34,691 nt of DNA, taken from the IMG/VR virus record IMGVR_UViG_3300014501_000047, positions 1 to 34,691 of that record. The stretch is one strand, 5' to 3'. The stretch comes from a virus. A program made the translations under genes and the position numbers. Below, piece after piece: positions 17,012-34,691 of the stretch. The notes beneath the pieces are model-generated. The model was not told the DNA's origin and did no database searches. It saw nothing but the letters and a program-made list of their open reading frames with translations. Numbering within the stretch: the stretch's first letter is position 1; the number at the start of each line of letters is the position of its first letter.

Positions 17012-17655
17012 AGTGATGCGCCAAGGTGAGTTTCGCGCCAAATACGGGCCATTTTAGCACCATGAGCGGCACGCTGTTCCTTGGTCCATTCCCGTTTTTT
17101 GTTTCTATCGGCCACTCTCTTGCGGGCTTCCTCAGTCCCAAACAGCGCCTTTGCCCGCGCCCTCTGCGCCTCGCGCGCCTCTGCGGACAGGCGTTTCTTC
17201 TTGCCGCGCGTGCTAACGCTTATCCTATTCCGCGATTCGTCGCTCCAAATTCGACTGCCGCTTGTCTTGCGTAGGATAGCTCTATGCTCATCAGAAATTA
17301 TTTTTCCCTTGTGTACCGCGCTGATTGCGGCCCTCCTTTCTGGTGAGAAGACGATGCCTGATGTGCCGTCGCCACCATCCGTCTGGTTGACCAGCGGCCC
17401 GTTGCGGCCTCGACCAATCGCCGAGATCAGGGCTATCTCGATCTCAAATGCAGCCTGCTCTGACAAATTTTCTCGGATTTTAACAACAGGCAAACTCCAA
17501 GTCGCATCCTGAATGATGCGCATCAGCTTTCTATTGTCGTGTTTTGCTCCCTTGTAGAAATGCACTCGATGACGGTAGCCGCGTCCCTTGCCGATGTAGC
17601 ATGGCGAGCCATCAGGGCGGAAGATCGCATAGATATAGAAATCATTGTGGGGCAT
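17008..17655 (-). CDS. GIY-YIG homing endonuclease with NUMOD3-type repeats
   Basis: I chose ATG at 17655 ([12 protein letters not shown]), which overlaps the Nudix gene by 14 bases; this gives 215 aa. The catalytic core shows YIYAIF...CYIGKGRGYRHR (GIY-YIG variant), an Arg-rich helix, an E in EIEIALISAIG, and a Gly-Asn loop (LVNQTDGGDG). The C-terminal half has two short repeats of the NUMOD3 type (SPERRAAISAVHKGK, SDESRNRISVSTRGK) that bind DNA. It ends with ATGA over the protease start codon, so its insertion left the downstream start intact. Confidence 0.88.
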   Translation of the reverse strand: MPHNDFYIYAIFRPDGSPCYIGKGRGYRHRVHFYKGAKHDNRKLMRIIQDATWSLPVVKIRENLSEQAAFEIEIALISAIGRGRNGPLVNQTDGGDGTSGIVFSPERRAAISAVHKGKIISDEHRAILRKTSGSRIWSDESRNRISVSTRGKKKRLSAEAREAQRARAKALFGTEEARKRVADRNKKREWTKEQRAAHGAKMARIWRETHLGASL

Positions 17656-17989
17656 CGGTGCCTTCCAGGGCCTCATCGATGTTGACCCACAGGTATGCCG
17701 TGTGCTCCCCGTTCAACTGAGGGAGAAATTTGTCTGATACCTTTTGCAAGTATGTCGTGAAGTGAACACCCGCCATGTTTGTTTCGCAGAACTTGCTGCG
17801 CGTCCCCTCTGGTAGAAACCCGATTTCCTCGATGGTCTCTCGCTTGGCGGTGTCCTCTGGCGTCTCCCCATCCTCCAATGTACCGCCTGGGAAACACCAC
17901 TCCCCGGGATGATCCCCTCCAGGACCGCGCTTGAGCAACAACACCTGTTGATCTGGCGCGATGAACAATATGCCAGCGCCACGGATCAT
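17642..17989 (-). CDS. Nudix hydrolase
   Basis: A 115-aa protein. The Nudix box is near residues 35-58: [20 protein letters not shown] followed by EIGF, fitting Gx5Ex7REUxEExGU with E/E as metal ligands. The fold begins [20 protein letters not shown], typical of Nudix strand 1-2. These enzymes hydrolyse nucleoside diphosphates linked to another moiety; the substrate here (dNTP variants, NAD-type or capped RNA) cannot be read from sequence. The start overlaps the previous stop (ATGA). The C-terminus may have been clipped by the GIY-YIG insertion, since the last residues lie inside that overlap. Confidence 0.85.
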
Positions 17990-19010: not shown

Positions 19011-19265
19011 TCAAGCATTTCTCTGGTATCCAGTCTCGCCGTCTATCTTCGCTTCTTCTACACGCATTGCCAGAATTTTTTGATAGCCCAGCTCAGCCCG
19101 CGCTTGCGCCTCGGAAATCGTATCAAAGACATCGATCAGAGCGCCCTGAAGCCGCAGCGCAAACTTCTTCGCGCCGCCGACTGACGGCCTGATGGTGTAC
19201 CTGCCATCCCCGATTGTATCAGCAAACAAGTTTGGCCCGACCAAGCCCCACACAAGATCGGTCAT
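19011..19265 (-). CDS. Hypothetical 84-aa protein
   Basis: Begins MTDLVWGLVGPNLFADTIGD, with its ATG overlapping the ParA-like stop (ATGA). The middle (ALRLQGALIDVFDTISEAQA) looks like one strand plus a helix of a small alpha/beta domain. Translationally coupled to the ParA-like gene, so it could be a partner, but no DNA-binding motif is visible. Function unknown. Confidence 0.6.
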   Translation of the reverse strand: MTDLVWGLVGPNLFADTIGDGRYTIRPSVGGAKKFALRLQGALIDVFDTISEAQARAELGYQKILAMRVEEAKIDGETGYQRNA

Positions 19266-19981
19266 CGCACCAGCGGACCCACGACGCGATCAAAGCTCGC
19301 ATGAACATCGTTGAGCCACGCGCGGACGTACCCGCGCAGCACGCGCGAGTTTTTGTTGTCGGCGATGAACGCGGCGAACATCTCGCCGGCACGGTCCACC
19401 GCCTCGCACGATGTCTCGTCGAGGTTTGGGATGTCGATGGATGGCTGCACCGGATCGTCCACGAAGACTGCATCCTCGTTGACGTAGTTGCGCACCTGCA
19501 CCAGATGCGCGCCGTGAAGCGCGGCGACCACGGCCGGCACCTCGCTGGTCGAGGCCACGGTCGGGCCGATGACGTGCAGCACCATCAGGCGCAGCGCGCC
19601 ACGGCGCACGTCGTCCATGATGTCGATCTTGTGGAACGACTTCAGGATCGGGCTGAGCAGGTTCGCGTGAGCATCGACCACGGTCACAGCCTTCGCGGTG
19701 GCCGAGTCCACCATCTTCATCTGACCCGGCACCGAGTTGATGTTGAGCATGTCGGCGCGCGGATAGAACCGCTTGAGCACGCCGGTCTCGCCCGGCTCGG
19801 TGTCGATGGCGCGGATCGGCACCTCGTTCTTTTCGAGGTAATCGAGCAGCGCCCTGGTCACGGTCGTCTTGCCGACGCCACCCTTGTCGGCACCGACGAT
19901 CATGATCAGCGGGCTCTTCGCTGCCGGCGTGCCTTGCGGGATCGGGCCGGGACCGCCTGCCGCTTCTTCAACGCTGACCAT
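19262..19981 (-). CDS. ParA/MinD-type P-loop ATPase
   Basis: I chose ATG at 19981 (MVSVEEAAGG), with GGAGG 5 bases upstream, over a GTG at 20005 that lies in the operator repeats; this gives 239 aa. A deviant Walker A (GADKGGVGKTTV, residues 30-41) with both lysines marks the ParA/MinD class. AIDTEP (D60) and VVDAHA (D103) fit the switch and Walker B positions. Relatives segregate plasmids or place cell structures, and some phages carry them for prophage-plasmid partition or as orphan ATPases. Its place between head genes is odd. It has its own predicted promoter with three GTGCCA repeats. Confidence 0.8.
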   Translation of the reverse strand: MVSVEEAAGGPGPIPQGTPAAKSPLIMIVGADKGGVGKTTVTRALLDYLEKNEVPIRAIDTEPGETGVLKRFYPRADMLNINSVPGQMKMVDSATAKAVTVVDAHANLLSPILKSFHKIDIMDDVRRGALRLMVLHVIGPTVASTSEVPAVVAALHGAHLVQVRNYVNEDAVFVDDPVQPSIDIPNLDETSCEAVDRAGEMFAAFIADNKNSRVLRGYVRAWLNDVHASFDRVVGPLVR

Positions 19982-19999
19982 TGGTGCCTCCGTTGGGGA

Positions 20000-20035
20000 T
20001 GGCACGATACTGGCACTGATTTGGCACGATGTCTA
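20000..20035 (-). promoter_or_regulatory. Promoter a with three 11-bp-phased GTGCCA repeats
   Basis: Minus strand: TAGACA (20035-20030), 17 bases, CAGTAT (20012-20007). GTGCCA occurs at 20027-20022, 20016-20011 and 20005-20000, an exact 11-bp period covering the -10 and the expected start. The TAG of the 55-aa gene is the first half of the -35 box. It would drive the ParA-like gene. Confidence 0.55.
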
Positions 20036-22117: not shown

Positions 22118-22330
22118 CTAACTAGCCGCCGCATTCCGCTTGTAGGCCGCCGCGATATGAATGAAATAACTATCGATGGCAGCAACGGCATCGAAGTGCG
22201 CCGCCGCAGCATCCTTCCAGTTTCGCGAACTGCATGCCGCACTGAAGCGCAGCAGCGCCTCGTTGTAGACTTTCATGCTCCCCGTCGCGGCGTTGAAAGA
22301 CTTCATCACGTCTTCTGGCAGGTCGCTCAT
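22118..22330 (-). CDS. Hypothetical 70-aa helical protein between portal and head morphogenesis genes
   Basis: Begins MSDLPEDVMKSFNAATGSMK and is Ala-rich and helical to the end (FDAVAAIDSYFIHIAAAYKR). Its ATG overlaps the portal stop (ATGA) and its TAG is followed at once by the next ATG. No motif recognised. Position suggests a head assembly helper. Confidence 0.6.
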   Translation of the reverse strand: MSDLPEDVMKSFNAATGSMKVYNEALLRFSAACSSRNWKDAAAAHFDAVAAIDSYFIHIAAAYKRNAAAS

Positions 22331-23892
22331 TGCACCCGCTCCTGCGCGTCGCGGATCACACGCGCTGGCAGCTTGGGCGCGAGCGCGGCGACCGACTCGC
22401 GAAGCTCCCTGGCGGTGGCGCTATCGGCGAATGGCTTGGGTGGCTTTGGCGTCTCGCTCGCCGCCGCGTTGCCGGCCTTCTGCGCCTCCTTGAGCTGTTC
22501 GGCCTTCTCTTCAAGGAAGCTCCGCATCGCGTCGGGATCGAGAATGAGCGGCGACTGGAACAGCAACTTCAGCTCGTTGAATTGCTCGCATCCCCACTGG
22601 ATCAGGATGATCTTGTTCTCGTCGTCCATGTTCGGCATCAGCACTTCCATCAGCGCGATCACGGCGCGCAGCTTCACGTCGTCCACCTTGATCTGCTCGG
22701 ATGGCGGCTCCTTCAGCAACGAAGGCCACTTCGCCGTGTACGAGTTCGCCCAGCGATAGAACGCGGCGGCGAATGTCATCTTGCCGTACTGATCGGGGAA
22801 GTCCTCCTGGATCAGCTTGTAGAAATCCGGCGTCCAGGCGCGGCGCTGCACGATCATGTCGAAGAAATTGTAGAGCGGGGCCATCTCTTCGCGGATGCCG
22901 TCAATGAACCGCGCGACATACTTCGCATCCTCGGTGCCCTCACCGAAACCCTCGGCAAAGGTCTCTTGCAGCAATATCTTCGCCGGCATGTCGCCGCCGG
23001 TCGCGATGTTCTCGATGATGTTCTTGCGCGCAATCGTGTACGGCGCGTCGAGGTTTTGCAGGTTGAGCGACTCGATCTTCTCGGACTCGCCGATGGAGAT
23101 CACATTGTCGGTCTCGGCTTCCTTCAGTATCGCGCGCTTGATCCCGGCGATCTTCGACATCACGTTGTCGATGATCGAGCCCGGCGACTTCAGCATGGCG
23201 ACCAGGACGCCGACCTTTCGCACCACCAGATCGTCGGTGATCATCGTTTGCACGAAAGACTTCAGCGGATAGAGCGGGCGCTGGTACACCGACCGGCCGA
23301 CGAAGCCGAAGGCCGCCTGCGTGTAATCGATGTAGACCGGCTCTTCGTTGAGGATGATCCGCGTGCGCGAGCGATGATAGGTGCTGCCGTTCACCCTGAT
23401 GCTGCCGCTGGTCTTGTTGAAGTCCATCGCGTTCGGGTTCTGGCTGAGCACCAGCGATCCCGCCGTGTTGAGCGGATCGAAGACGTTGAAGCTGATGTCC
23501 TTCTTCCACAGGTCTTCAAGCGGAAGCGCCGGGCTCCCGAGCGGCGCGTTGGTGTCCACGCCATCGACCAGCATCGCGACGGAGGCGACACCATAGGCGC
23601 GCGAGAGTTTCATCGTGTTGCGGATGATCTTGTCCGCACCGATGGCCTCCCACTCTTTTTGAAACGCTTCTTTGCACCGCTCTTCGGGACTGTCCGGGAT
23701 CGCGATCTCGCGCTTGTCGCTCTGCGCCAGCTTGATCGGCGCTTCTGCCATCTTCGCGCCGATGGGGTGCAAGGTTAAAATAACTTTGCACATCTGATAA
23801 CTCGGTTGCTCCCCTGGCACGATTGCATCGCACATCAAGAGTTCCTGAAGCCCGTTTCCAACGGGAGTGCCGCCCAAGGAAATCCTGGTCAT
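22327..23892 (-). CDS. Portal protein (DUF1073-like)
   Basis: A 521-aa protein between terminase/accessory genes and MuF. It contains portal-like sequence: PIGAKMAEAPIKLAQSDKRE and IGADKIIRNTMKLSRAYGVA near the N-terminus, NVFDPLNTAGS, then PLYPLKSFVQTMITDDLVVR and NIATGGDMPAKILLQE in the central helical part. The C-terminal tail (EEKAEQLKEAQKAGNAAASE) is charged. Portals form the dodecameric vertex ring through which DNA enters and leaves. The ATG follows the GIY-YIG stop directly (TAAATG), so the nuclease inserted just upstream. The N-terminus looks slightly short but the body is complete. Confidence 0.82.
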   Translation of the reverse strand: MTRISLGGTPVGNGLQELLMCDAIVPGEQPSYQMCKVILTLHPIGAKMAEAPIKLAQSDKREIAIPDSPEERCKEAFQKEWEAIGADKIIRNTMKLSRAYGVASVAMLVDGVDTNAPLGSPALPLEDLWKKDISFNVFDPLNTAGSLVLSQNPNAMDFNKTSGSIRVNGSTYHRSRTRIILNEEPVYIDYTQAAFGFVGRSVYQRPLYPLKSFVQTMITDDLVVRKVGVLVAMLKSPGSIIDNVMSKIAGIKRAILKEAETDNVISIGESEKIESLNLQNLDAPYTIARKNIIENIATGGDMPAKILLQETFAEGFGEGTEDAKYVARFIDGIREEMAPLYNFFDMIVQRRAWTPDFYKLIQEDFPDQYGKMTFAAAFYRWANSYTAKWPSLLKEPPSEQIKVDDVKLRAVIALMEVLMPNMDDENKIILIQWGCEQFNELKLLFQSPLILDPDAMRSFLEEKAEQLKEAQKAGNAAASETPKPPKPFADSATARELRESVAALAPKLPARVIRDAQERVQ

Positions 23893-24594
23893 TTACGATG
23901 GTCTCCCGCGCATTGCTTCAATTGTTGCTTTGCTTATCAGCACCGACCGATCTCTCTTTTGTTGATCGGTCATGGAGGCGTGCCACTGAAGAGCTGACCT
24001 ACGACGCCGCTCTCGCCCCTCTGGACTTGAGGCCGCTGCCTTCATGGCCGCACAATACTCTGGCGACATCTTCTTGCCACGACGCGCGATGCTGCGGCGA
24101 CGCCTAGTTTCCTCGGATATAATTGCCCCAGCCAACCCGTTACCACCGTCCGTCATGTTGACCAGTGGACCGCCGTGAGCAACACGTCCTATTTTTGCGA
24201 TAAGCTCGCGCTCAAATAGGCATGCCCCATCATCGGTCATACCCCATTTGACTAGCTCGATTGGCAAATCCCCGAACTTGGCGAATGCCGCCGCCAACGA
24301 CTTGTTGTGAGTGCCCTTGGCGTGCCTCAGATACCGGATGCCGCGCCCCTTGCCGACATACAATGGTGTGCCGTCCGGTAGTTTAATCAGATAGACATAG
24401 CTGATTGGCTCAAGCTCAGCACCGGAGCGCGGCGCAAACCGCTCTCGGGGAGGTCGGCCGTCATAGCGGTTAGCCATATAATTGAGGAAGCACCGCTTGC
24501 ACTCAGGTCGATGACCATCGCGACACTCAGCGTTCTTATAAAATTCAGAACGCGGCTTTTCCGACCCACATTTTGAACAGACCTTCCGCGCCAT
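23893..24594 (-). CDS. GIY-YIG homing endonuclease with N-terminal zinc finger
   Basis: A 233-aa protein starting MARKVCSKCGSEKPRSEFYK with GGGAG upstream. C6/C9 and the later ECKRC form a zinc ribbon like that of the HNH enzyme at 5.2 kb. The GIY-YIG core starts near residue 66 (YVYLIKLPDGTPLYVGKGRG), with RYLRH next and ERELIAKIGRV carrying the metal-binding Glu. A conserved LVNMTDGGNG loop follows, then a NUMOD3-type segment (SEETRRRRSIARRGK). Zinc finger sharing between HNH and GIY-YIG elements suggests domain swapping among homing genes. The stop is directly followed by the portal start. Confidence 0.88.
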   Translation of the reverse strand: MARKVCSKCGSEKPRSEFYKNAECRDGHRPECKRCFLNYMANRYDGRPPRERFAPRSGAELEPISYVYLIKLPDGTPLYVGKGRGIRYLRHAKGTHNKSLAAAFAKFGDLPIELVKWGMTDDGACLFERELIAKIGRVAHGGPLVNMTDGGNGLAGAIISEETRRRRSIARRGKKMSPEYCAAMKAAASSPEGRERRRRSALQWHASMTDQQKRDRSVLISKATIEAMRGRPS

Positions 24595-24630
24595 GCTCGC
24601 TCCCTCGAATCAGGGGCGATGTTAGCATGC

Positions 24631-24665
24631 AAAAGGCCGCCCCTGGTTTCACCCAAGAGGCGGCC
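24631..24665 (-). terminator. Rho-independent terminator
   Basis: Minus strand: GGCCGCC (24665-24659), a 17-base loop, GGCGGCC (24641-24635), then TTTT. The stem is 7 GC pairs. It lies 31 bases after the small membrane protein gene and before the GIY-YIG/portal genes, separating the accessory block from the head genes. Confidence 0.6.
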
Positions 24666-24695
24666 CTCCGCGCACGGCGGGCTCGGCAGGTTGGT

Positions 24696-24962
24696 TCAGC
24701 GATGAGGCATCAACGATGGAAAGCCGCCGGCAAAGCTGATCAGGCAGGTGATCAATTCGAAGCAAACAATAACCACAACGATTGTGATAACTGCCCACAG
24801 GACGATCCTGAGCGCCCCCACAATGACGGCCCATCCCTCGCCCATTGCAACGCCGAGCCTGCGGATGACGTAGGGGATCACAAGCTGAAGGATGCCGATG
24901 ATTGCAACGATAATAATGGCCCAGATCAGAATTGCCTTTAGCCAGTCGAGCGAGAAGCACAT
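24696..24962 (-). CDS. Small two-segment membrane protein (holin candidate)
   Basis: 88 aa with GGAGG 8 bases upstream. Two hydrophobic segments, about residues 10-33 (AILIWAIIIVAIIGILQLVI) and 46-75 (IVLWAVITIVVVIVCF), flank a short loop containing RR and GEG. Size and topology suit a holin-like or other inner-membrane phage protein. No lysis gene is recognised nearby, so the lysis role is inferred only from shape. It is the last gene before the terminator at 24631. Confidence 0.58.
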   Translation of the reverse strand: MCFSLDWLKAILIWAIIIVAIIGILQLVIPYVIRRLGVAMGEGWAVIVGALRIVLWAVITIVVVIVCFELITCLISFAGGFPSLMPHR

Positions 24963-25003
24963 GGTCGTGGCCTCCTATGGCTGCGGCATCAACTCAGTGG
25001 CGA

Positions 25004-25195
25004 TCAAAAAGTTCCCTTCGCGTGACGGTCACGCCCCGACATGCCGGCGTTCCTGCAAATAAAATACATGGCCGCATGCGTGACCCCGTAGACCGCCGCG
25101 ATGTATTCGAGCGGCCACCTCGGGCGACCATCGCCCCAACACTGTGATGCGATGTTGATGATTTCAGATCGCTGCGCTGGCGTCAGCTTCGTCAC
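25004..25195 (-). CDS. Small helix-turn-helix protein, GTG start
   Basis: 63 aa from GTG at 25195, which overlaps the previous stop (GTGA). Residues about 28-50 (PLEYIAAVYGVTHAAMYFIC) fit a helix-turn-helix (Gly-Val at the turn) like those of small DNA-binding proteins; the N-terminal SEIINIASQCWG is also helical. It could be a small repressor or terminase-like DNA-binding factor. It is the only obvious small HTH in the window and thus a candidate for binding the GTGCCA operators, but no evidence links them. Confidence 0.58.
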   Translation of the reverse strand: MTKLTPAQRSEIINIASQCWGDGRPRWPLEYIAAVYGVTHAAMYFICRNAGMSGRDRHAKGTF

Positions 25196-25422
25196 CGGCC
25201 GCCGGCCTTCTCCGCTTCCTGCACCAGACGCTCCAACACGCCGCGCTTGGCGACCATCGTGATCTCGGCAAACCCGCGCAGCTTGCGGATGTTGTTCAAC
25301 TCGCTCTCGGCCTTCGACATCGCCTCTTCAGCTCCGCGCTCTTGCTGGCGCAGGGTACGGAGGATGTCGGAAAGTCCAGCGATCTCTTCGCGAATAGCCT
25401 TCGTGCCGTCGAATGTGGTCAT
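25192..25422 (-). CDS. Coiled-coil protein (76 aa)
   Basis: Begins MTTFDGTKAIREEIAGLSDI and is nearly all helix with heptad-like spacing (LRTLRQQERGAEEAMSKAES, ERLVQEAEKAGG). The start shares a base with the previous stop (TAATG). Probably an oligomerising small protein; no enzymatic motif. Function unknown. Confidence 0.6.
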   Translation of the reverse strand: MTTFDGTKAIREEIAGLSDILRTLRQQERGAEEAMSKAESELNNIRKLRGFAEITMVAKRGVLERLVQEAEKAGGR

Positions 25423-25739
25423 TACTTGCCTCGCATCCGATCGATCTGGGCGAACACGCTCAATAGACCTTGGACGTTTCTCTGACCAACATGGCGCAGC
25501 GTCTCGTTGCTATAGCGCAGCGCCGACACAACGAGTGGCGGCACGGCAGCGTTTTCAGCCCGCGCCTTCGCGGCGCTTTCCCGATGAGCATGGTATGACT
25601 TCTTCCATGTGGCGGCGTCTTCGACCGATTTCTGGAGACACACCTTGCACACATAGGCACTCGGCCCAGAGAACTCGTGGATCTGCAGCCGTATCTCGCA
25701 ACGAACGCAGCGCCTTATTTGCTCGGTCATGGCCGCCAT
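25422..25739 (-). CDS. Zinc-ribbon protein (105 aa)
   Basis: CVRC and CKVC pairs (residues 11-14 and 31-34) flank a short loop (EIRLQIHEFSGPSAYV), giving one zinc ribbon. The C-terminal part is helical (SVEDAATWKKSYHAHRESAA). A second ATG at 25730 overlaps the stop of a possible 21-aa frame and may be the true start. Phage zinc ribbons often bind nucleic acid or protein; nothing more specific is visible. Confidence 0.6.
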   Translation of the reverse strand: MAAMTEQIRRCVRCEIRLQIHEFSGPSAYVCKVCLQKSVEDAATWKKSYHAHRESAAKARAENAAVPPLVVSALRYSNETLRHVGQRNVQGLLSVFAQIDRMRGK

Positions 25740-25792
25740 CCAATCCCGCGCGACGAGACGAAGAAGATGATCGTCGTTGTTCTGTTGATCAT
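25727..25792 (-). CDS. Possible 21-aa coupled peptide
   Basis: ATG at 25792 overlaps the preceding stop (ATGA), and the frame's own TGA overlaps the ATG at 25730 of the next gene, so it tiles the gap perfectly with ATGA at both ends. The peptide starts MINRTTTIIFFVSS. It may serve only to couple translation. Confidence 0.3.
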   Translation of the reverse strand: MINRTTTIIFFVSSRGIGWRP

Positions 25793-26127
25793 CGCGGCAC
25801 CGCCGTCATTGGCGCTTGCGGTTGCGCCGGCATCGGTTGCGGCTTGATGCTGTTGACGCCATCATCGAATGCCTTCTTGCACTCGGCGCGCATCTTCAGG
25901 ATCGGGCCTAGATCGCCCATGCCGAAGCTCATGCCGACGATCCTGCCCATCTGCCGGCAGATCGCCATGAGCATCACCTGCGGCGGTATGTTGGCGAGCG
26001 AAGCGGACGCGCCGCGCGTCAGGCAGTTGAACATCGGGAACAGCATCGTATCCAGTTGGTCGGTGAGGGTTGGTGCCCGCGGCGCCGCGCCGTTTCCTGC
26101 CGGCTGATCTGGCGTGTCTTCGCTCAT
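25789..26127 (-). CDS. Hypothetical 112-aa protein
   Basis: Begins MSEDTPDQPAGNGAAPRAPT (disordered), has a Met-rich helical core (MLMAICRQMGRIVGMSFGMG) and a Pro/Gln-rich end (KPQPMPAQPQAPM). The start overlaps the upstream stop (ATGA). The core could be a small helical bundle. Function unknown; it is in the block of small, probably early genes. Confidence 0.55.
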   Translation of the reverse strand: MSEDTPDQPAGNGAAPRAPTLTDQLDTMLFPMFNCLTRGASASLANIPPQVMLMAICRQMGRIVGMSFGMGDLGPILKMRAECKKAFDDGVNSIKPQPMPAQPQAPMTAVPR

Positions 26128-26555
26128 GCGTTTCCTCCTTCGACTGCCTGGATGACGGCCTTCGACCCGATGCCGTCCTCACCGCCGAGCGCCGCCTTCA
26201 GTTGCTCGCCGATGATCTGGCAGGTGAAATCGACGATCTCGGGGTTCGCTTTCTTATGGTTCAAGCCGGCCACGTTCATAATTGCAGAGGTGCAAATAGT
26301 CGCAACCGCATGGCACAAGTCATCGTGCGCGGTGTGCCTGTTCGCCTCGGCGGCGATGGCCGTGATGACCGCCCCGTTGACCGCGATGCACATCCGCGCC
26401 TGCGCTCCGATGTGATCGTCAAGGTCTTTCAGCGGCTCCATTACCTTCACGCCGTCCTCGATCAGCTTGAGAATGTCGCTCTCCAGGAAGTGTGACGGAC
26501 GGCGTGGTGCCTCACTGTCCCTGTCTTGTTTGTTGCTCACGTTCCTTTGCCTCAC
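26124..26555 (-). CDS. Hypothetical 143-aa protein, GTG start
   Basis: GTG at 26555 or 26540 could serve, each preceded by AAAGGAA; both lie in the 15-bp tandem repeat, so the true start is unclear. The charged N-terminus leads to a helical domain with Cys (MCIAVNGAVITAIAAEANRH, DDLCHAVATICTSAIMNVAG). No family recognised. It overlaps the 3' end of the preceding gene by 44 bases. Confidence 0.5.
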   Translation of the reverse strand: MRQRNVSNKQDRDSEAPRRPSHFLESDILKLIEDGVKVMEPLKDLDDHIGAQARMCIAVNGAVITAIAAEANRHTAHDDLCHAVATICTSAIMNVAGLNHKKANPEIVDFTCQIIGEQLKAALGGEDGIGSKAVIQAVEGGNA

Positions 26556-26910
26556 GTTCCTTTGCCTCTCTCTGCCGTCGATACCATGTGCGCCTCGACA
26601 TTGGCGGGTCCATCGACTTCCACGGCTCCAGCTCGGTCAAGGTCTTATCGCCGCTGCCGATGCGGCGCGGGCCTGTCTTGTAGATCGGCTCTACCTTGGC
26701 CTCGAAGACGCGAGGGCGACCCGTATGCTTCGATCCGTTTCCCGCAGCAACCTTGCGTGGCGTCTTGCCGCGCTTGCGGCTCTTCGGCTTTGGTGCGCTA
26801 CGAGCCTTCGCAGGTCGGGGCTTCGCAACAGCATCGCGAGGCGGGCTTGTGCTGATAGCACGAGGCTTGCCTTTCTCACGGAGCGCACGGAGCGCATCGA
26901 GCTTGCTCAC
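26512..26910 (-). CDS. Basic DNA-binding-like protein (132 aa), GTG start
   Basis: GTG at 26910 has AGGAGG 10 bases upstream and lies 17 bases past the predicted +1 of promoter b. The N-terminal half is very Lys/Arg/Pro/Ala-rich (AKPRPAKARSAPKPKSRKRG), similar to histone-like or disordered nucleic-acid-binding tails. The C-terminal half has PMSRRTWYRRQREAKEREAK, which resembles the recognition helix of a small homeodomain-like HTH. A 15-bp tandem repeat encodes AKERE twice. Confidence 0.52.
   Translation of the reverse strand: MSKLDALRALREKGKPRAISTSPPRDAVAKPRPAKARSAPKPKSRKRGKTPRKVAAGNGSKHTGRPRVFEAKVEPIYKTGPRRIGSGDKTLTELEPWKSMDPPMSRRTWYRRQREAKEREAKEREQQTRQGQ
26536..26565. repeat. 15-bp tandem repeat (2 copies)
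   Basis: CTCACGTTCCTTTGC occurs exactly twice in tandem (26536-26550, 26551-26565). It encodes a repeated AKERE on the minus strand and carries two copies of the AAAGGAACGTG ribosome-site/GTG unit at the start of the next gene. Confidence 0.9.
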
Positions 26911-26926
26911 TACAACAATCCTCCTG

Positions 26927-26962
26927 CGGCACTAATCTGGCACAGTCTTGGCACAAGATCAA
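26927..26962 (-). promoter_or_regulatory. Promoter b with three 11-bp-phased repeats
   Basis: Minus strand: TTGATC (26962-26957), 17 bases, CAGATT (26939-26934). GTGCCA at 26954-26949 and 26943-26938 and GTGCCG at 26932-26927 repeat every 11 bp. The TGA stop of the upstream gene lies inside the -35 box. It precedes the GTG-start basic protein. Confidence 0.55.
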
Positions 26963-27552
26963 CAGAGCCCAGGCAGCACCCGCTTATTTGCGTTCTTCAG
27001 CGTCGCCTTTTCGTCAGTCTCTAACGCGATCTTCTGCGCCAGCATACGGTCGCCGACGATGCTGCCTGGACAGCCGATTGGGATAAAGCATAGCTCCATG
27101 ACAGGCGTGAGCGTCTTCGTGCCGAGCGCCTTGACGCCGTGGCTGTACGCCTTCGTGATCAGATATTTCTTCTTGCTCGCGTTTCCGATCACGGTGAATT
27201 GCCCGTCGCGCTCGAACTCGGCGCGCTGATCCGGCGTGAGCCAATCCTTCAAAAGCTCGATGCTTCGGTCGTTGGCCTCTATGGTCTCGGCTCCTGGAAA
27301 GACACAAAGCGCTGGGATCGACACTCCCGCGCCGCCGCTGCCGCCGCTGAACACCTCGGCGATTGTCTGCGTGCGCTCTGGCTCGGGGAGCGCTGCCAAT
27401 GCGCGCATGGCCGCTTGCTCAAGTTCGGTTGGTGGCGACATTTGATAGCTGACTCCGTAGGCCCCCCGCTCGACCAGACACATCAAAACGCAACCGCCGC
27501 AGCCGACGAGCATGCCGGCCACGGCGGTCCACAAAAAGATGACATCGAGCAT
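26959..27552 (-). CDS. Membrane-anchored protein with conserved C-terminal domain (197 aa)
   Basis: The N-terminus (MLDVIFLWTAVAGMLVGCGG) is one hydrophobic segment and could be a signal anchor. After a Gly-rich linker (about 68-80), residues 95-190 form a domain with DRSIELLKDWLTPDQRAEFE, DGQFTVIGNAS, KKKYLIT, LCFIPIG and GDRMLAQKIALETDEKATLK. This domain (LTxxQR, F.V.G..S/G..Y.I, C..P, P..D..LAQK..LE) recurs in phage and alphaproteobacterial proteins of unknown function. No catalytic motif is clear. Its stop codon forms part of promoter b. Confidence 0.6.
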   Translation of the reverse strand: MLDVIFLWTAVAGMLVGCGGCVLMCLVERGAYGVSYQMSPPTELEQAAMRALAALPEPERTQTIAEVFSGGSGGAGVSIPALCVFPGAETIEANDRSIELLKDWLTPDQRAEFERDGQFTVIGNASKKKYLITKAYSHGVKALGTKTLTPVMELCFIPIGCPGSIVGDRMLAQKIALETDEKATLKNANKRVLPGLC

Positions 27553-27553
27553 C

Positions 27554-27588
27554 GGTTAATTACCGGGGTACTTATGGGGTAATTACCC
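27554..27588. promoter_or_regulatory. Pair of AATTA palindromes (operator candidate)
   Basis: GGTTAATTACC (27554-27564) and the perfect 12-bp palindrome GGGTAATTACCC (27577-27588) are centred about 23-24 bp apart, between a 74-aa gene and the 197-aa gene. Two helical turns of spacing suit a dimeric repressor. Confidence 0.4.
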
Positions 27589-27807
27589 GCCGACGTTATG
27601 CGGGAAGACCAGCGAATCGTCCTTGGTCGGATCGAAGGTCTTCGACACCGTGTAGTCCGTCTCGCCGGCCTTGCGGGTCGCAACGCGCCCGCCACTGGCG
27701 AGCATCGTGTTGACGCGAGCCATCGCCTCGTCGATCTCCACCTTGGTCGCGGTCGAGAGATCGATGGTCGAGTGCCCGGTGCGATCCATGATTTTCAGTA
27801 GCGGCAT
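27583..27807 (-). CDS. Small protein (74 aa)
   Basis: I chose ATG at 27807 because AGGAGG lies 7 bases upstream; earlier in-frame codons run through the structured leader. The sequence MPLLKIMDRTGHSTIDLSTA, then VEIDEAMARVNTMLASGGRV, suggests a small alpha/beta fold. It is the first gene after promoter c and its stem-loop leader. Function unknown. Confidence 0.62.
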   Translation of the reverse strand: MPLLKIMDRTGHSTIDLSTATKVEIDEAMARVNTMLASGGRVATRKAGETDYTVSKTFDPTKDDSLVFPHNVGG

Positions 27808-27833
27808 TGCCTGCCTCCTGGGTTGGATGAGTC

Positions 27834-27900
27834 GGGCGCGAGAGGCGTCGGCTGGTGGATGCGACCGAACCGGACTGAGGAAACGGCACCTCTCGCGCCC
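27834..27900 (-). ncRNA. 5'-terminal stem-loop leader RNA (promoter c)
   Basis: GGGCGCGAGAGG (27900-27889) pairs perfectly with CCTCTCGCGCCC (27845-27834), a 12-bp stem closing a 43-base loop. The stem starts where the promoter c transcript is expected to begin (about 27902-27900) and ends 26 bases before the ATG at 27807. Within the loop only weak hairpins (GTCG/CGAC, CCG/CGG) are seen. It may protect the mRNA 5' end or regulate translation. Confidence 0.5.
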
Positions 27901-27901
27901 T

Positions 27902-27938
27902 TGGCACGAATTTGGCACAGATCGGCGCGGCTGGTCAA
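27902..27938 (-). promoter_or_regulatory. Promoter c with two 11-bp-phased GTGCCA repeats
   Basis: Minus strand: TTGACC (27938-27933), 18 bases, CAAATT (27914-27909), with GTGCCAAATTCGTGCCA at 27918-27902. The upstream gene's TGA (27937-27935) lies inside the -35 box. The predicted transcript begins with the 12-bp stem at 27900. Confidence 0.6.
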
Positions 27939-28117
27939 GGCTTTGTCGTTTCCCTCTCGCAAATCGCCGTGCCGTGCACGCCGTACATCCGCTTGCCGGC
28001 CAGCTCGATGCACGCGGCCTCGCTCGACAAGCCGGTGATCACCGTATGCTCGACGGCGAAGCGCGGCGGATCGGATGACACCATGATCATTGCGACGATG
28101 GTGAGCGTGTAGAGCAT
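27935..28117 (-). CDS. Small exported or membrane-tethered protein (60 aa)
   Basis: MLYTLTIVAMIMVSSDPP has a short hydrophobic start like a signal anchor. The remainder (FAVEHTVITGLSSEAACIEL, then AICERE) has two cysteines that could pair. It follows the DUF551-like gene by 7 bases. Function unknown. Confidence 0.52.
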   Translation of the reverse strand: MLYTLTIVAMIMVSSDPPRFAVEHTVITGLSSEAACIELAGKRMYGVHGTAICERETTKP

Positions 28118-28124
28118 GGGCTAA

Positions 28125-28520
28125 TCATTCCTTGACGGCGGCAGCGTTCTCGCTGGTCTCGGGATTTGGCTCCTTCTTCGGCGGCGTGATCGGCTTCCAA
28201 TGCGTCGCGCCATCCCATTCGCCAGCCTCAAAGCACGGCTTGTTGTCACCCCCTTCGATCAACCGCCAGTATCCTTCGCAGCAGCACCATATGATACAGG
28301 CGAACACTTTCTCTTTCTCTGCCCACGTCAGGATCGGCGTGCCGTCCTTTGGCGCGGTCTCGATGGGCCGCCAGTCGTCATCATCTCGACGGATGATCAA
28401 ATAACCGGCATCCGCAAGGTCATCGATGATGTCGCGGACGTAAACTTGTTGGGAGAGGCCGAATGGTATGGCGCGAGCAATAGCTTCGCGCGGGGACTGT
28501 GTTCGCGTTACCTCTGCCAT
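28125..28520 (-). CDS. DUF551-like protein
   Basis: I chose ATG at 28520 (MAEVTRTQSP), with GGAG 5 bases upstream, giving 131 aa. The C-terminal half has the DUF551 pattern: DWRPIETAPKDGTPILTWAE, then EGYWRLIEG and GATHWKPITPPKKE. N-terminal residues 10-45 look like a small helical domain (FGLSQQVYVRDIIDDLADAG). DUF551 proteins are frequent in phage accessory regions and have no known role. Upstream lie a 19-codon frame and the structured leader after promoter d. Confidence 0.7.
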   Translation of the reverse strand: MAEVTRTQSPREAIARAIPFGLSQQVYVRDIIDDLADAGYLIIRRDDDDWRPIETAPKDGTPILTWAEKEKVFACIIWCCCEGYWRLIEGGDNKPCFEAGEWDGATHWKPITPPKKEPNPETSENAAAVKE

Positions 28521-28522
28521 GT

Positions 28523-28582
28523 TCACTCCTTCCAGAGCACGTCGCCCGCGCCGCCTGGAAGTGGCGAGATGATGTGGCGCAT
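28523..28582 (-). CDS. Possible 19-aa leader peptide
   Basis: ATG at 28582 with GAGG 6 bases upstream opens 19 codons (MRHIISPLPGGAGDVLWKE) whose last codons form the ribosome site of the DUF551-like gene (stop 2 bases before its ATG). It lies between the structured leader and the main gene, as leader peptides do. Real translation is unproven. Confidence 0.35.
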   Translation of the reverse strand: MRHIISPLPGGAGDVLWKE

Positions 28583-28596
28583 TTTTGCCTCGTTTG

Positions 28597-28686
28597 CCTC
28601 GGGGGCGGCAAAGCCCTACGTCACCGCAGGGCCACCCTCACCCAACTTGCCAACGGATGAGCGGCCGGTAGTCGCCGCCCCCGAGG
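28597..28686 (-). ncRNA. 90-nt structured leader RNA (three-stem)
   Basis: Outer stem: CCTCGGGGGCGGC (28686-28674) with GCCGCCCCCGAGG (28609-28597), 13 perfect pairs. Inside are two hairpins: CTCATCC/GGGTGAG (7 pairs, 11-base loop) and GCCCTGCG-GTGA-CGTAGGGC (8 pairs including a G-U, GNRA-type loop). The expected start of the promoter d transcript (about 28687) is the first base before the outer stem. This fits a cis-regulatory element or small RNA; no known family is recognised. Confidence 0.55.
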
Positions 28687-28723
28687 TAGCACTAATTTGG
28701 CACAAACGGCCGAGAGGCGTCAA
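28687..28723 (-). promoter_or_regulatory. Promoter d with 11-bp-phased GTGCCA/GTGCTA pair
   Basis: Minus strand: TTGACG (28723-28718), 18 bases, CAAATT (28699-28694), with GTGCCA at 28703-28698 and GTGCTA at 28692-28687. The upstream TAG (28728-28726) ends 2 bases before the -35 box. The structured RNA starts right after. Confidence 0.6.
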
Positions 28724-28725
28724 GG

Positions 28726-28899
28726 CTACTGCGTCTCCAGCTTATCGTTCGCCACCTCTTCCCGGATCGCCTCGATGCGGCTCTCCAGATCAGCGATGAT
28801 CTGCTCCATAAATTCTACGGCATTGGCTTTCGTCATCGCAGGCCACGTCGCCGTGTCGATTATCTTGAGCACGTCATCGACTGTCATGGGTTCAGACAT
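28726..28899 (-). CDS. Hypothetical 57-aa protein
   Basis: ATG at 28899 overlaps the preceding gene by 8 bases. The product (MSEPMTVDDVLKIIDTATWP, then FMEQIIADLESRIEAIREEV) is acidic and helical, with a likely coiled coil in the second half. A later ATG at 28887 is possible. Supported by composition and tight packing; function unknown. Confidence 0.55.
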   Translation of the reverse strand: MSEPMTVDDVLKIIDTATWPAMTKANAVEFMEQIIADLESRIEAIREEVANDKLETQ

Positions 28900-29134
28900 C
28901 GGTCAGCCCCAACGCGCGCAGTTGGTTCTGTAGCTCGGCGATGGTCAAGTCCAAGAGGCGCTTCGCCAAGACCGCATCAGCGATCTCAAAGTTGTGCTCC
29001 AGTGCGCACTCGCCCTGGGACGACGCCAGATAAAGATTATGGCCGAGACCCTTGTCGAGTTGCTTGCGTAGCCCTCTGGCGGCGTAGAGTTTTGCCAATA
29101 GCTCTGCCGCCTCTTTTACCTTCTCGGATTTCAT
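28892..29134 (-). CDS. Hypothetical 80-aa protein
   Basis: Begins MKSEKVKEAAELLAKLYAAR and is helical throughout (ADAVLAKRLLDLTIAELQNQ), with a short loop LGHNLYLASSQGE. Coupled to the upstream gene by ATGA. No motif recognised. Confidence 0.57.
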   Translation of the reverse strand: MKSEKVKEAAELLAKLYAARGLRKQLDKGLGHNLYLASSQGECALEHNFEIADAVLAKRLLDLTIAELQNQLRALGLTDV

Positions 29135-29328
29135 GTGATCCCCTTCGGTGCAGGATACCGCTGTTCAAGGATGCAGATCGCGAGCGCGTACTCGCCGGCC
29201 GACAGATCACGCGACGCCAGCACGACCTTATCGCTCCTGTTGGTTGGCATGTCGTGCGGCCACTTCTCAGGCTCCGGGCCGCGCAGACCGCGCACCCACA
29301 CGAACTTGCCGCCTTCGGGACCAATCAT
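29131..29328 (-). CDS. Hypothetical 65-aa protein
   Basis: MIGPEGGKFVWVRGLRGPEP, then SDKVVLASRDLSAGEYALAI, suggests a small beta-rich fold. Start and stop overlap neighbours (ATGA both sides), supporting a real gene in a translationally coupled string. Function unknown. Confidence 0.55.
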   Translation of the reverse strand: MIGPEGGKFVWVRGLRGPEPEKWPHDMPTNRSDKVVLASRDLSAGEYALAICILEQRYPAPKGIT

Positions 29329-29534
29329 TGCACGATCCCCTGATGCGTGATCGTGATCGCGATCACCTCAATAACGAGAGCGATCATAATGGCGCACCAG
29401 CAAATGAATATGCTCACCGCGCCCCTGCTCTCCATCGTGTTCGCGGCTCGAAAGAAGCCGGCCACCGCCGCCATCCCCGCGATGATCGTCAGGAAAAGAA
29501 TGAGCCCGAAGAGGTGCGCTTGCTGTTGCGTCAT
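29325..29534 (-). CDS. Small membrane protein (69 aa), holin candidate
   Basis: I chose ATG at 29534 (MTQQQAHLFG), which overlaps the previous stop. Two hydrophobic segments (LFGLILFLTIIAGMAAVAGF and VSIFICWCAIMIALVIEVIA) flank a short loop with R and E. With the next upstream membrane gene it forms a pair of tiny overlapping membrane proteins, the layout of holin/antiholin pairs. No endolysin is seen, so this is tentative. Confidence 0.5.
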   Translation of the reverse strand: MTQQQAHLFGLILFLTIIAGMAAVAGFFRAANTMESRGAVSIFICWCAIMIALVIEVIAITITHQGIVQ

Positions 29535-29722
29535 TGCGTCACCACCCATGCGACCAGCGCCAGCGCCGGGCCAGCGGCAATAAGAAGCGTGACGCCGAGA
29601 GAGTTGTGCCAGCGGCTCGGGCGGTCAATCGCTTCCGCATAATGCCGACACCAAAACATGATCCAGCAAAGGTAAAGCGCGGAGACACCGAAGGCTTGCG
29701 CGGCGCGCGTGAAGTGATCCAT
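29531..29722 (-). CDS. Small membrane protein (63 aa)
   Basis: MDHFTRAAQAFGVSALYLCW, a charged middle (CRHYAEAIDRPSRWH) and a C-terminal hydrophobic segment (GVTLLIAAGPALALVAWVV) give two membrane segments. It overlaps the next membrane gene by ATGA. Possible partner of that protein. Function unknown. Confidence 0.52.
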   Translation of the reverse strand: MDHFTRAAQAFGVSALYLCWIMFWCRHYAEAIDRPSRWHNSLGVTLLIAAGPALALVAWVVTQ

Positions 29723-29723
29723 C

Positions 29724-29954
29724 TCACCAATCCTGGTTCGGCACGCGGTCGCGGATCAGCCAGCCGTCGCCCGACCACGTTGCGTTGAAGTATGCCTTGA
29801 AGTCGCTGCCCACCGCTTCGGCGACGGCGGCATCAGGCTCGAACAGCACGACATTCCTCACCGAGCCGTTACCGTATGCCATCCACGGTCCATCGGTCGG
29901 CTTGGTGCCGTCCGGGGTGAGCGGACGCTGCACCTTGATAATCTCGATTGTCAT
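29724..29954 (-). CDS. Hypothetical 76-aa protein downstream of promoter e
   Basis: ATG at 29954 (MTIEIIKVQRPLTPDG), with GAGG 4 bases upstream, is chosen over upstream codons that run through promoter e. The sequence has paired strands (PWMAYGNGSVRNVVLFEPDA) and aromatic residues (FKAYFNATWSGDGWLI). Function unknown. It is the first gene of the run of small genes. Confidence 0.58.
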   Translation of the reverse strand: MTIEIIKVQRPLTPDGTKPTDGPWMAYGNGSVRNVVLFEPDAAVAEAVGSDFKAYFNATWSGDGWLIRDRVPNQDW

Positions 29955-29976
29955 TTGCCTCGTGCCTCTGTCTCGG

Positions 29977-30012
29977 TGGCACGAATATGGCACAGCGCCG
30001 GGAGCGTGTCTA
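29977..30012 (-). promoter_or_regulatory. Promoter e with two 11-bp-phased GTGCCA repeats
   Basis: Minus strand: TAGACA (30012-30007), 17 bases, CATATT (29989-29984), with GTGCCATATTCGTGCCA at 29993-29977. The HNH gene's TAG (30012-30010) is the first half of the -35 box. It would drive the 76-aa gene and those below. Confidence 0.6.
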
Positions 30013-30399
30013 CTTGCCGGAAGCCGCCTTGGCGCGGATGTCCCCTGCGAGCCATGACGCATAGATCGATGCGATGGTGGGGCCTTTGTATGGGCGACGG
30101 TGAGCGTACTTCAGGTCCGCTTCCATCTTGTGCTTGATCTCCAGCATGATGTCGAGGCGACAGGCGCGGCCGGCGCGAACAGCGATGTACTCTTCGTGTG
30201 TCAGGTTGGCCTTGTCGCTATTGCAGTGCCGGCAGACGACGTGGATGTTGTTGCGCAACCCCGCACCGCCTCGGCACTTCGGTATCTTGTGATCTCGGCT
30301 CGGGGCGTCGGGATGATGAAGCCCGAGATCGCGGTGCATCTTCACACCGCAGTACGGGCACGGCTTGCCCAGGAACAGCTTTATGTTCGGCGATGACAT
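30010..30399 (-). CDS. HNH endonuclease next to terminase
   Basis: The real frame starts at ATG 30399 (MSSPNIKLFL), 9 bases after the large terminase stop; upstream codons overlap the terminase. In 129 aa it has CPYC, then SRDHKIPKCRGG, NNIHVVCRHCNSDKANLT: a complete small HNH core with paired Cys. Some cos phages need an HNH protein beside the terminase for DNA packaging, so this one may be functional in packaging rather than a homing enzyme. Confidence 0.85.
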   Translation of the reverse strand: MSSPNIKLFLGKPCPYCGVKMHRDLGLHHPDAPSRDHKIPKCRGGAGLRNNIHVVCRHCNSDKANLTHEEYIAVRAGRACRLDIMLEIKHKMEADLKYAHRRPYKGPTIASIYASWLAGDIRAKAASGK

Positions 30400-30407
30400 G
30401 ACACAAC

Positions 30408-31685
30408 TCAAAAGCCCTCGACGTTGCCCAGCGCGATAGCAATCCCATAGGTGAAGCAATCGAGCAAGTCGTCTTCGTCCTGGTCCTTGTCGCCGACCCG
30501 GAAGCCGATCACCTGACTGAGCAGATGGTTTTGCGTCGTGCCTTTGTAGATATAGGACTTGTTGAACGCATTCTCGGTGAGCTTCACCGAGCCACGATAG
30601 ACATACCCCGACACGCTGATGGCGCGCTCCGACTTCCCCACGCTGGTCAGCTTCGAGTCGATGGCCTGCGCCGGCAGGCCGCGCCGCTTGGCCTGTTGCA
30701 GCAAGATCATGCCGCTGGCCTGATCCTCGATCCAGATGCCCGATGATCCCATGCGAGCGCCAGTGCGTTTTGCCAGCAGCTCCAGGTGCGAGGCCACCGA
30801 TGGCAACCACCGTTCCAGCACGGCACCCTCGATCTGGATCAGCTCGTGGTCGAGGATCGTCAGTGGGTATGCCGTTCGGCCATGCCGTTCGAGCGCGAAG
30901 TAGACGACGCCAGTGCCGTCGTTCTCATTCTTCGTCTTGGTGGCAGTGTCGATCACCGCGAACACGGTATCGCACTTCACCGGCTCTGGCACCGGCAGAT
31001 CGTTCACCAGCATGTTGGTGAGCGCGAAGAAGGCGACGCCGCTCCAATCGACGAACTCGGCAAGGTACTCTTGCTGGTACACCAGCGGATGATTGTTGGC
31101 CTGGAGCGCCGCCAACTCGTCGGCCGGCAGATACGGATTGTTGTGCGTCGGCGCGTGGAAGACGCGGAAGCCATGCTCGGGCTGATTGCAGATGCGCCAG
31201 AAGAAATTCTCCGGGTCGATCCCGTTGGTGTTCGAGAGCACCAGTGCCGAGCCGCGATAGTCGAGCAGCGTCGGCTTGATCGCCTTCGTCCAGATGTCCA
31301 TCATGTCGTCGTCGGTGAACGCCGCCTCGTCCACGATGACTCGGTGATACTTCCGCGAGCGACCGGCGCGCTTGTTGCCAAGCGTCCAGAAGTCCAAACG
31401 CCCGCCCGTTAGCGTGCGGTACACCATCGCCACGCGCGACGAGGCTTGCTTGATCGGCGACAGTATCTCGTCCAGCTCGTTGAACGCCTCAGACGAAATC
31501 TTGTAGTCAGGCGCGAACCACCCCACGCTCCTGCCGCGTGCCAGATCATCGCACGCAATCGTCTTCGCCAGATCGGTCTTGCCCCACCGTCGCCCGCAGC
31601 GCACGGCCTTGAAGCGCCCAGGCAACAGGAAGGCGCGGCACTGACCCGGATGCAGCTCGGGGATCGGCAGCTCGATGTCCATCAT
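30408..31685 (-). CDS. terL: Terminase large subunit
   Basis: ATG at 31685 overlaps the small terminase stop (ATGA), giving 425 aa. ATPase: Walker A CGRRWGKT (30-37) and Walker B RVIVDE (115-120, E120). Nuclease: acidic residues D246 (AVIDTA), E320/D321 (IWIEDQ) and D409 (LLDCF) fit the RNase H-like metal site. It pumps DNA into the procapsid through the portal and cuts concatemers. Length is normal or slightly short. The neighbouring HNH gene fits a packaging module. Confidence 0.9.
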   Translation of the reverse strand: MMDIELPIPELHPGQCRAFLLPGRFKAVRCGRRWGKTDLAKTIACDDLARGRSVGWFAPDYKISSEAFNELDEILSPIKQASSRVAMVYRTLTGGRLDFWTLGNKRAGRSRKYHRVIVDEAAFTDDDMMDIWTKAIKPTLLDYRGSALVLSNTNGIDPENFFWRICNQPEHGFRVFHAPTHNNPYLPADELAALQANNHPLVYQQEYLAEFVDWSGVAFFALTNMLVNDLPVPEPVKCDTVFAVIDTATKTKNENDGTGVVYFALERHGRTAYPLTILDHELIQIEGAVLERWLPSVASHLELLAKRTGARMGSSGIWIEDQASGMILLQQAKRRGLPAQAIDSKLTSVGKSERAISVSGYVYRGSVKLTENAFNKSYIYKGTTQNHLLSQVIGFRVGDKDQDEDDLLDCFTYGIAIALGNVEGF

Positions 31686-32152
31686 CCATCCTTCGGGATC
31701 GACGCCGCGATCTCTTCCGCTGTCGGTTTGTATTTCTCCCAATCCTGCGGGAGACCGCCAGTGATGATGACCCGCTGCTCATGCTGGCCGCCGCCTCCAC
31801 CACCGCCCTCGAACGGCGAAGCATCGGTCCAGCCCATCCGGTTCTTCTGATACCAGATGATCGCCGTCATGTTGCCCTTACGCACGTTCGCCATCAGCGC
31901 GCCCAGCACAATCGCATCGACGTTCGCCTGCCCCTCGTCCAGCTCGCGACGGAATACCTTCTCCAACGTGTCCTTCGAGATCGGTGCCTTCGTGTCTTCG
32001 TTGATGATCGCAAAGCGAATGCGCTCATGCGTCATGCCGCCGGCCACCATCAGCGTGACCGCGTTGCGCTGGCCCTCAGTCGGCACAAACTCGGGCTTGC
32101 CCGGCTTGGCCCGTTTTTTCAGGGCAGTATTTGAGGGTGCACGCTTGCTCAT
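31682..32152 (-). CDS. terS: Terminase small subunit
   Basis: ATG at 32152 is preceded by AAGGGG; another ATG lies one codon earlier. 156 aa. PTEGQRNAVTLMVAGGMTHE, RFAIINEDTKAPISKDTLEK and FRRELDEGQ form the HTH-containing N-terminal part, then MTAIIWYQKNRMGWTD is typical for small terminases. A seven-Gly linker near residue 118 leads to the C-terminal segment likely contacting the large subunit. It recognises the packaging site on phage DNA. Confidence 0.8.
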   Translation of the reverse strand: MSKRAPSNTALKKRAKPGKPEFVPTEGQRNAVTLMVAGGMTHERIRFAIINEDTKAPISKDTLEKVFRRELDEGQANVDAIVLGALMANVRKGNMTAIIWYQKNRMGWTDASPFEGGGGGGGQHEQRVIITGGLPQDWEKYKPTAEEIAASIPKDG

Positions 32153-32184: not shown

Positions 32185-32228
32185 GTGCCAAATCTGTGCC
32201 ACAAGTCACCCTGGCACGAATATGACAC
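32185..32228. promoter_or_regulatory. Inverted pair of 11-bp-phased repeats (operator f)
   Basis: GTGCCA at 32185-32190 and 32196-32201, then TGGCAC at 32212-32217 and TGACAC at 32223-32228: two direct-repeat pairs facing each other across 10 bp. It lies upstream of the small terminase and of the divergent DUF488 gene. A CATATT -10 is present on the minus strand (32224-32219), but no -35 match. Confidence 0.5.
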
Positions 32229-32301
32229 TACCATGATTCCTCCTGGCACAACCCCAGCAAGCCCAGGTTTCATGGGCTCAACCCTGCACAAGACCATTGC
32301 C

Positions 32302-34588: not shown

Positions 34589-34691
<103 letters not shown>

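What the first reader, a model, noticed from the sequence alone, without database searches (positions are those of the whole stretch)
28597..28686. Candidate new structured RNA: 90-nt three-stem leader starting at the predicted +1
A perfect 13-bp stem closes two internal hairpins, one with a GNRA-type tetraloop (GCCCTGCG-GTGA-CGTAGGGC) and one of 7 pairs. It begins at the first base after the repeat operator and lies upstream of a 19-codon frame and the DUF551-like gene. A multi-branch RNA this compact is unlikely by chance and could be a riboswitch, thermosensor, protein-binding leader or processed small RNA.
Basis: partly seen in the sequence, partly recalled or inferred. Interest (0 to 1): 0.72.

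Follow-up and report, generated by a model that had tools for sequence, protein, structure and literature searches.

The report
Phage mRNA capped by stable hairpin
An uncultivated bacterial virus starts at least two of its messenger RNAs with a very stable RNA hairpin that sits right at the predicted first base, most likely to protect the message from decay; it looks like a new example of a known kind of element rather than a new riboswitch, and no relatives were found with which to test it.

Summary
The minus strand at 28597-28686 folds into one dominant structure: a 15-bp outer stem (13 Watson-Crick pairs, then G-U and A-U), an 11-bp arm and a 9-bp GUGA-loop arm (-63.6 kcal/mol; 1 of 20,000 shuffles as stable; most stable of 6,920 100-nt windows for its GC). 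It starts 2 nt after a promoter/operator (TTGACG-18-CAAATT inside TGTGCCAAATTAGTGC).

New here: a second leader at 27834-27900, unrelated in sequence and inner fold, sits flush behind a near-identical promoter. These two stems have the most pairs of all stems of 40-120 nt span in the window, so the flush position is unlikely to be chance. What they share is only a paired 5' end. I therefore favour 5'-terminal mRNA-protecting stem-loops, perhaps also RNase III substrates.

The start site is inferred. Function is unproven.

The parts
28597..28686 (-). Leader A: 90-nt three-way-junction RNA (15-bp outer stem, 11-bp arm, 9-bp GUGA arm)
28674..28686 (-). Leader A outer stem, 5' arm (CCTCGGGGGCGGC)
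28597..28609 (-). Leader A outer stem, 3' arm (GCCGCCCCCGAGG)
28689..28704 (-). Operator repeat TGTGCCAAATTAGTGC overlapping the -10 region of promoter A
28694..28723 (-). Promoter-like TTGACG-18-CAAATT (predicted +1 about 28687)
   Evidence: and sequence; start site inferred, not mapped
28523..28582 (-). 19-codon frame MRHIISPLPGGAGDVLWKE with a GAGG ribosome site at 28588-28591; its stop lies 2 nt before the next ATG
   Evidence: accessibility
28125..28520 (-). Gene downstream of leader A (131 aa, orphan; WRPIETAPKDGTP motif)
27834..27900 (-). Leader B: second flush hairpin, 17-nt arms 88% complementary (14 continuous pairs in the fold)
27904..27919 (-). Operator repeat TGTGCCAAATTCGTGC of promoter B
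27909..27938 (-). Promoter-like TTGACC-18-CAAATT of leader B; 50 nt 70% identical to the promoter A region
27583..27807 (-). Gene downstream of leader B (74 aa, orphan; AGGAGG site outside the hairpin)

Best explanation
Leader A is the 5'-terminal stem-loop of a phage mRNA. Transcription starts at about 28687 from a TTGAC-18-CAAATT promoter under a GTGCCA repeat operator, so the first or second base of the transcript is already the first base of a very stable closed helix. With at most one or two free 5' nucleotides the end is a poor substrate for RNA pyrophosphohydrolase and for 5'-end-dependent RNase E/G entry, which prolongs the life of the short message for the 19-codon frame and the 131-aa gene; the ribosome site lies in the open linker just after the stem. 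Leader B does the same for the next small operon. Shown: the fold, its excess stability, its flush position behind two near-identical promoter modules, and the open ribosome site. Inferred: the start site, the protection, and that the virus needs it.
For: Fold and stability. The two stems with the most pairs in the window (16 pairs each) are leaders A and B, both beginning 2-3 nt after the GTGC of the operator, in the same register to 1 nt. By my own estimate random placement of the 4 minus-strand stems of 14+ pairs would put two of them flush with six promoters with probability about 3e-6, or about 2e-4 if stems are confined to intergenic DNA. A and B promoters share 50 nt at 70% and the same TTGACx-18-CAAATT, while the hairpins share neither sequence nor inner fold, so a property independent of sequence (a paired 5' end) is what they have in common. 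RBS linker open; fold survives 20-75 C. Literature: RppH and RNase E need single-stranded 5' ends, and 5' stem-loops stabilise mRNAs such as papA and bla fusions (PMC3997798).
Against: The start site is predicted from a weak -10 (CAAATT). Four other operator promoters in the window have leaders without a flush hairpin, so the phage does not need it everywhere. No enrichment of flush stems at promoters in 131 non-redundant related loci (8 of 381 stems against 1.2% in controls). A plain hairpin would do for protection; the branched inner part is unexplained. No homologue, so no evolutionary evidence of constraint.
Confidence: 0.45

Rival explanations
1. The leader is an RNase III processing site: the 9-bp GUGA arm stacks on the 15-bp outer stem to give about 24 continuous pairs, which host RNase III cuts, giving a processed mRNA 5' end and a small stable RNA.
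For: In the fold pair 54-75 stacks directly on pair 15-76 with no bases between, making a helix of about two turns; RNase III processing of leaders is common in phages (general knowledge).
Against: Leader B has only 14 continuous pairs before an asymmetric loop. The stability would equally serve an intact leader. No processing data.
Confidence: 0.2
2. The fold has no RNA function: an inverted repeat in GC-rich intergenic DNA that happens to follow a promoter, or a DNA-level feature.
For: A 13-bp perfect inverted repeat arises in 13% of control windows; stems of 14+ pairs are common in this phage group (381 in 1.8 Mb); no conservation found anywhere.
Against: Whole fold reached by 1 of 20,000 shuffles; minus-strand RNA folds about 12 kcal/mol better than the plus strand at the same place (-64.7 against -52.3); two leaders flush with the same promoter module.
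Confidence: 0.2
3. A binding site for a phage or host protein, or a put-like nascent RNA that acts on RNA polymerase (antitermination), as HK022 putL does just after its promoter.
For: Position directly after a promoter and size of 70-90 nt resemble HK022 putL (about 70 nt, two stem-loops just downstream of PL; PMC9378689).
Against: putL is two separate stem-loops, not one closed three-way junction; leaders A and B share no motif that one protein or RNA polymerase could read; no terminator-like site on the minus strand was found between leader A and leader B.
Confidence: 0.1
4. A riboswitch or thermosensor controlling the 19-codon frame and the 131-aa gene.
For: Multi-branched compact leader upstream of a gene.
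Against: No Rfam match at any useful score; single dominant fold; no terminator; ribosome site outside the stem; fold intact to 75 C; no homologues upstream of any gene.
Confidence: 0.03

Closest known systems
5'-terminal mRNA-stabilising stem-loops (E. coli ompA, papA; engineered bla leaders)
   Same: Stable stem-loop at the extreme 5' end, few free 5' nucleotides, ribosome site downstream and open
   Different: Here in a phage, a branched three-way junction, far more stable than protection would need, behind a repeat operator; half-life effect not measured
HK022 putL antitermination RNA
   Same: About 70-90 nt of structured RNA directly after a phage promoter
   Different: One closed junction instead of two stem-loops; sequence relation not tested directly; activity untested
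Phage leader RNase III sites (T7, lambda)
   Same: Long GC-rich helix in a phage leader; about 24 stacked pairs in A
   Different: B lacks a continuous helix of 20 or more pairs; no cleavage data
Chronisvirus/PdC23-like myophages (structural module)
   Same: Terminase and portal 44-51% identical to Klebsiella Chronis, Pantoea PdC23 and Shewanella QDWS
   Different: In many relatives terminase and portal are side by side; here 6.5 kb of orphan genes, both leaders included, lie between them

Membership tests
5'-terminal mRNA-stabilising stem-loop | Stem-loop flush with the transcript 5' end (few unpaired 5' nucleotides) | tested here: inconclusive
   Stem starts 7 nt after the -10, i.e. at predicted +1/+2; start site itself not mapped
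5'-terminal mRNA-stabilising stem-loop | Ribosome binding site outside the stem and accessible | tested here: met
   Linker bases after the stem mostly unpaired; GAGG of the 19-codon frame touched only by a 3-bp local helix; leader B has AGGAGG outside the hairpin
5'-terminal mRNA-stabilising stem-loop | Lengthens mRNA half-life through 5'-end pairing | not testable with these tools
   Needs half-life measurement
Riboswitch | Match to a known aptamer family | tested here: not met
Riboswitch | Expression platform (terminator or RBS switch) | tested here: not met
   no terminator-like site, RBS outside the dominant fold
RNA thermosensor | Melts in the physiological range and frees the RBS | tested here: not met
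   same fold from 20 to 75 C
Conserved structured RNA family | Compensatory base changes in homologues | not testable with these tools
   No homologue found:
HK022 put RNA | Two adjacent stem-loops just after the promoter | tested here: not met
   Fold is one closed three-way junction against two stem-loops (PMC9378689)
HK022 put RNA | Antitermination activity on RNA polymerase | not testable with these tools
   Needs in vitro transcription
RNase III site | About 20 or more continuous base pairs | tested here: inconclusive
   A: 15 + 9 stacked pairs; B: 14 pairs then a loop
Intrinsic terminator | GC-rich stem followed by a U run | tested here: not met
   Stem followed by CAAACGAGG; not listed by the scan

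The most novel reading that the evidence does not exclude
The two leaders are founding members of a phage-borne class of promoter-coupled nascent RNAs that act on transcription or on the host decay machinery by shape alone, with small cargo operons carrying their own operator-promoter and hairpin cassette.
Probability: 0.1. Interest if true: 0.6.

Novelty: new member of a known kind. Interest (0 to 1): 0.33.

Why it matters
If right, an uncultivated phage fits short cargo messages with built-in 5' protection under a shared operator, which would show how phages tune the life of individual small transcripts. It is directly testable in a laboratory E. coli reporter. As it stands it is a single genome with no homologues, so it is a good hypothesis rather than a discovery.

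Tried and rejected
Rfam at gathering and relaxed thresholds: nothing real. blastn of the leader against phage records, exact 20-mer of the GNRA hairpin in viral contigs, single-sequence covariance model over the terminase-based loci, 160 portal and head-protein loci, nine handle genomes or records and 385 class-level genomes: nothing but itself (the plus strand of the same site scores 25.5 bits, as expected of an inverted repeat). Operator pattern in viral contigs: 99 stretches, none with the same regulon or a flush leader, many of them one recurrent prophage sequence. Operator-promoter pattern in 385 genomes: none. Homologues of the 131-aa gene (two weak hits near E 0.01), of the leader B gene and of the 197-aa gene: none useful. 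Terminase scan of bacterial genomes with one protein: none; with an alignment: 24 loci, none with the leader. Closest relative with cargo between terminase and portal (L142, portal 68%) has different cargo and no such leader by stem scan. General test that flush stems follow promoters in this phage group: negative. Second very stable window at 24582-24681 turned out to be an intrinsic terminator. First z-scan with shuffles timed out and was replaced by a GC regression.

Full report
What is there. The window is a 34,691-base virus record with a Chronisvirus/PdC23-like myophage module: terminase large subunit at 30408-31742 and portal at 22327-23892 on the minus strand, 44-51% identical to cultured phages and up to 65-68% to viral contigs. 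On the minus strand at 28597-28686 the sequence forms a 15-bp outer stem enclosing an 11-bp arm with a 9-nt loop and a 9-bp arm with a GUGA tetraloop, at -63.6 kcal/mol, with MFE and centroid identical.

Is it more than chance? Of 20,000 dinucleotide shuffles one is as stable. Among 6,920 overlapping 100-nt windows on both strands it has the lowest energy for its GC content. The minus strand folds better than the plus strand in the same place (-64.7 against -52.3 kcal/mol), as expected of an RNA with G-U pairs. On the other hand a perfect 13-bp inverted repeat somewhere in such a window is seen in 13% of block-Markov controls, and long stems are common in related phages, so the stem alone proves little. 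With about 700 non-overlapping windows the shuffle result is worth roughly p = 0.03 to 0.05 for the whole window (my estimate).

The stronger argument is position. The window holds copies of a tandem operator GTGCCA-N5-GTGCC: 8 exact, 11 with one mismatch against about 1 expected. Six places on the minus strand combine it with a -10-like sequence and mostly a TTGAC/TAGAC-like -35 (28689, 27904, 29979, 26929, 20013, 32214). A scan of all stems of 40-120 nt span shows that the two with the most pairs in the whole window are the leader at 28597-28686 and another at 27834-27900. Both start 2-3 nt after the GTGC of an operator. Their promoters are alike (TTGACG-18-CAAATT and TTGACC-18-CAAATT; 50 nt at 70%), each -35 lying at the stop codon of the gene before. 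The hairpins themselves share neither sequence nor inner fold. By my own estimate, four minus-strand stems of 14+ pairs placed at random would put two flush with six promoters with probability about 3e-6, or about 2e-4 if they are restricted to roughly 4 kb of intergenic DNA. The other four promoters have leaders without such a hairpin.

How it most likely works. If transcription begins 6-8 nt after the -10, at A28687, the transcript has one free base before the helix. RppH and the 5'-sensing entry of RNase E need single-stranded 5' ends, which is why 5' stem-loops stabilise mRNAs (PMC3997798). The ribosome site of the 19-codon frame (GAGG, 28588-28591) lies in a mostly open linker after the stem, and that frame ends 2 nt before the ATG of the 131-aa gene, so the two are probably translationally coupled. 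I therefore favour a protective 5'-terminal stem-loop (0.45). Shown: fold, stability, flush position, open ribosome site. Inferred: start site, protection, benefit. An RNase III site is the main rival because the GUGA arm stacks on the outer stem for about 24 pairs; leader B does not offer that. A put-like or protein-binding role cannot be excluded, but A and B share no motif and the HK022 put RNA is two stem-loops (PMC9378689). Riboswitch and thermosensor are disfavoured by the absence of Rfam matches, of a terminator, of RBS sequestration and of melting up to 75 C.

Homologues. None found. The terminase is followed directly by the portal in many relatives (for example L002), while here 6.5 kb of small, mostly orphan genes lie between them; of these only one small gene (25789-26127) and the GIY-YIG gene have relatives in the fetched loci (L142 at 43%, L233 at 30%). 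L142, the closest contig with cargo at that place, has no such leader. The single-sequence covariance model finds nothing in the related loci or in 385 genomes of the class of one relative's host bin; a single-sequence model is weak and the host is unknown, so this is no proof of absence. A general test, whether flush stems follow promoters in this phage group, was negative, so the arrangement is particular to this genome as far as can be seen.

Verdict. A real, well-placed structured leader and a second one beside it; probably a new phage example of a known kind of element; unproven.

Noticed in passing
20001-20027, 26928-26954, 27903-27919, 28688-28704, 29978-29994, 32185-32229: A regulon of GTGCCA-N5-GTGCC direct repeats (11-bp period) over the -10 regions of six minus-strand promoters; no contig in IMG/VR with the same set was found.
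   Followed up: partly
23893-30408: A 6.5-kb block of small, mostly orphan genes lies between portal and terminase, which are adjacent in many relatives; L142 has different cargo at the same place and shares one gene (25789-26127).
   Followed up: partly
24631-24666: Strong intrinsic terminator (GGGCCGCC..GGGCGGCCTTTT) just upstream of the GIY-YIG-like gene 23893-24594; the second most stable fold of the window.
   Followed up: yes
17008-17676 and 23893-24594: Two related GIY-YIG-type endonuclease genes (37% identity over 129 aa), plus an HNH gene at 5242-5997 and an HNH-like frame near 30010-30400.
   Followed up: partly
19262-20005: ParA/CobQ-type ATPase gene with three operator repeats directly upstream (20001-20027), perhaps a partition or regulator gene linked to the operator regulon.
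   Followed up: no
27839-27849 and 28711-28721: Exact 11-mer CGAGAGGCGTC shared by the stem of leader B and the promoter spacer of leader A; may be chance.
   Followed up: no
about 34590-34650: Poly-G/low-complexity run near the window end (glycine run in the ORF list), possibly an assembly artefact.
   Followed up: no
L014, L016, L018 and many other prophage loci: TGTGCCATATTTGTGCCA recurs in one conserved sequence context across many prophages in viral contigs; unrelated to this operator by context.
   Followed up: no
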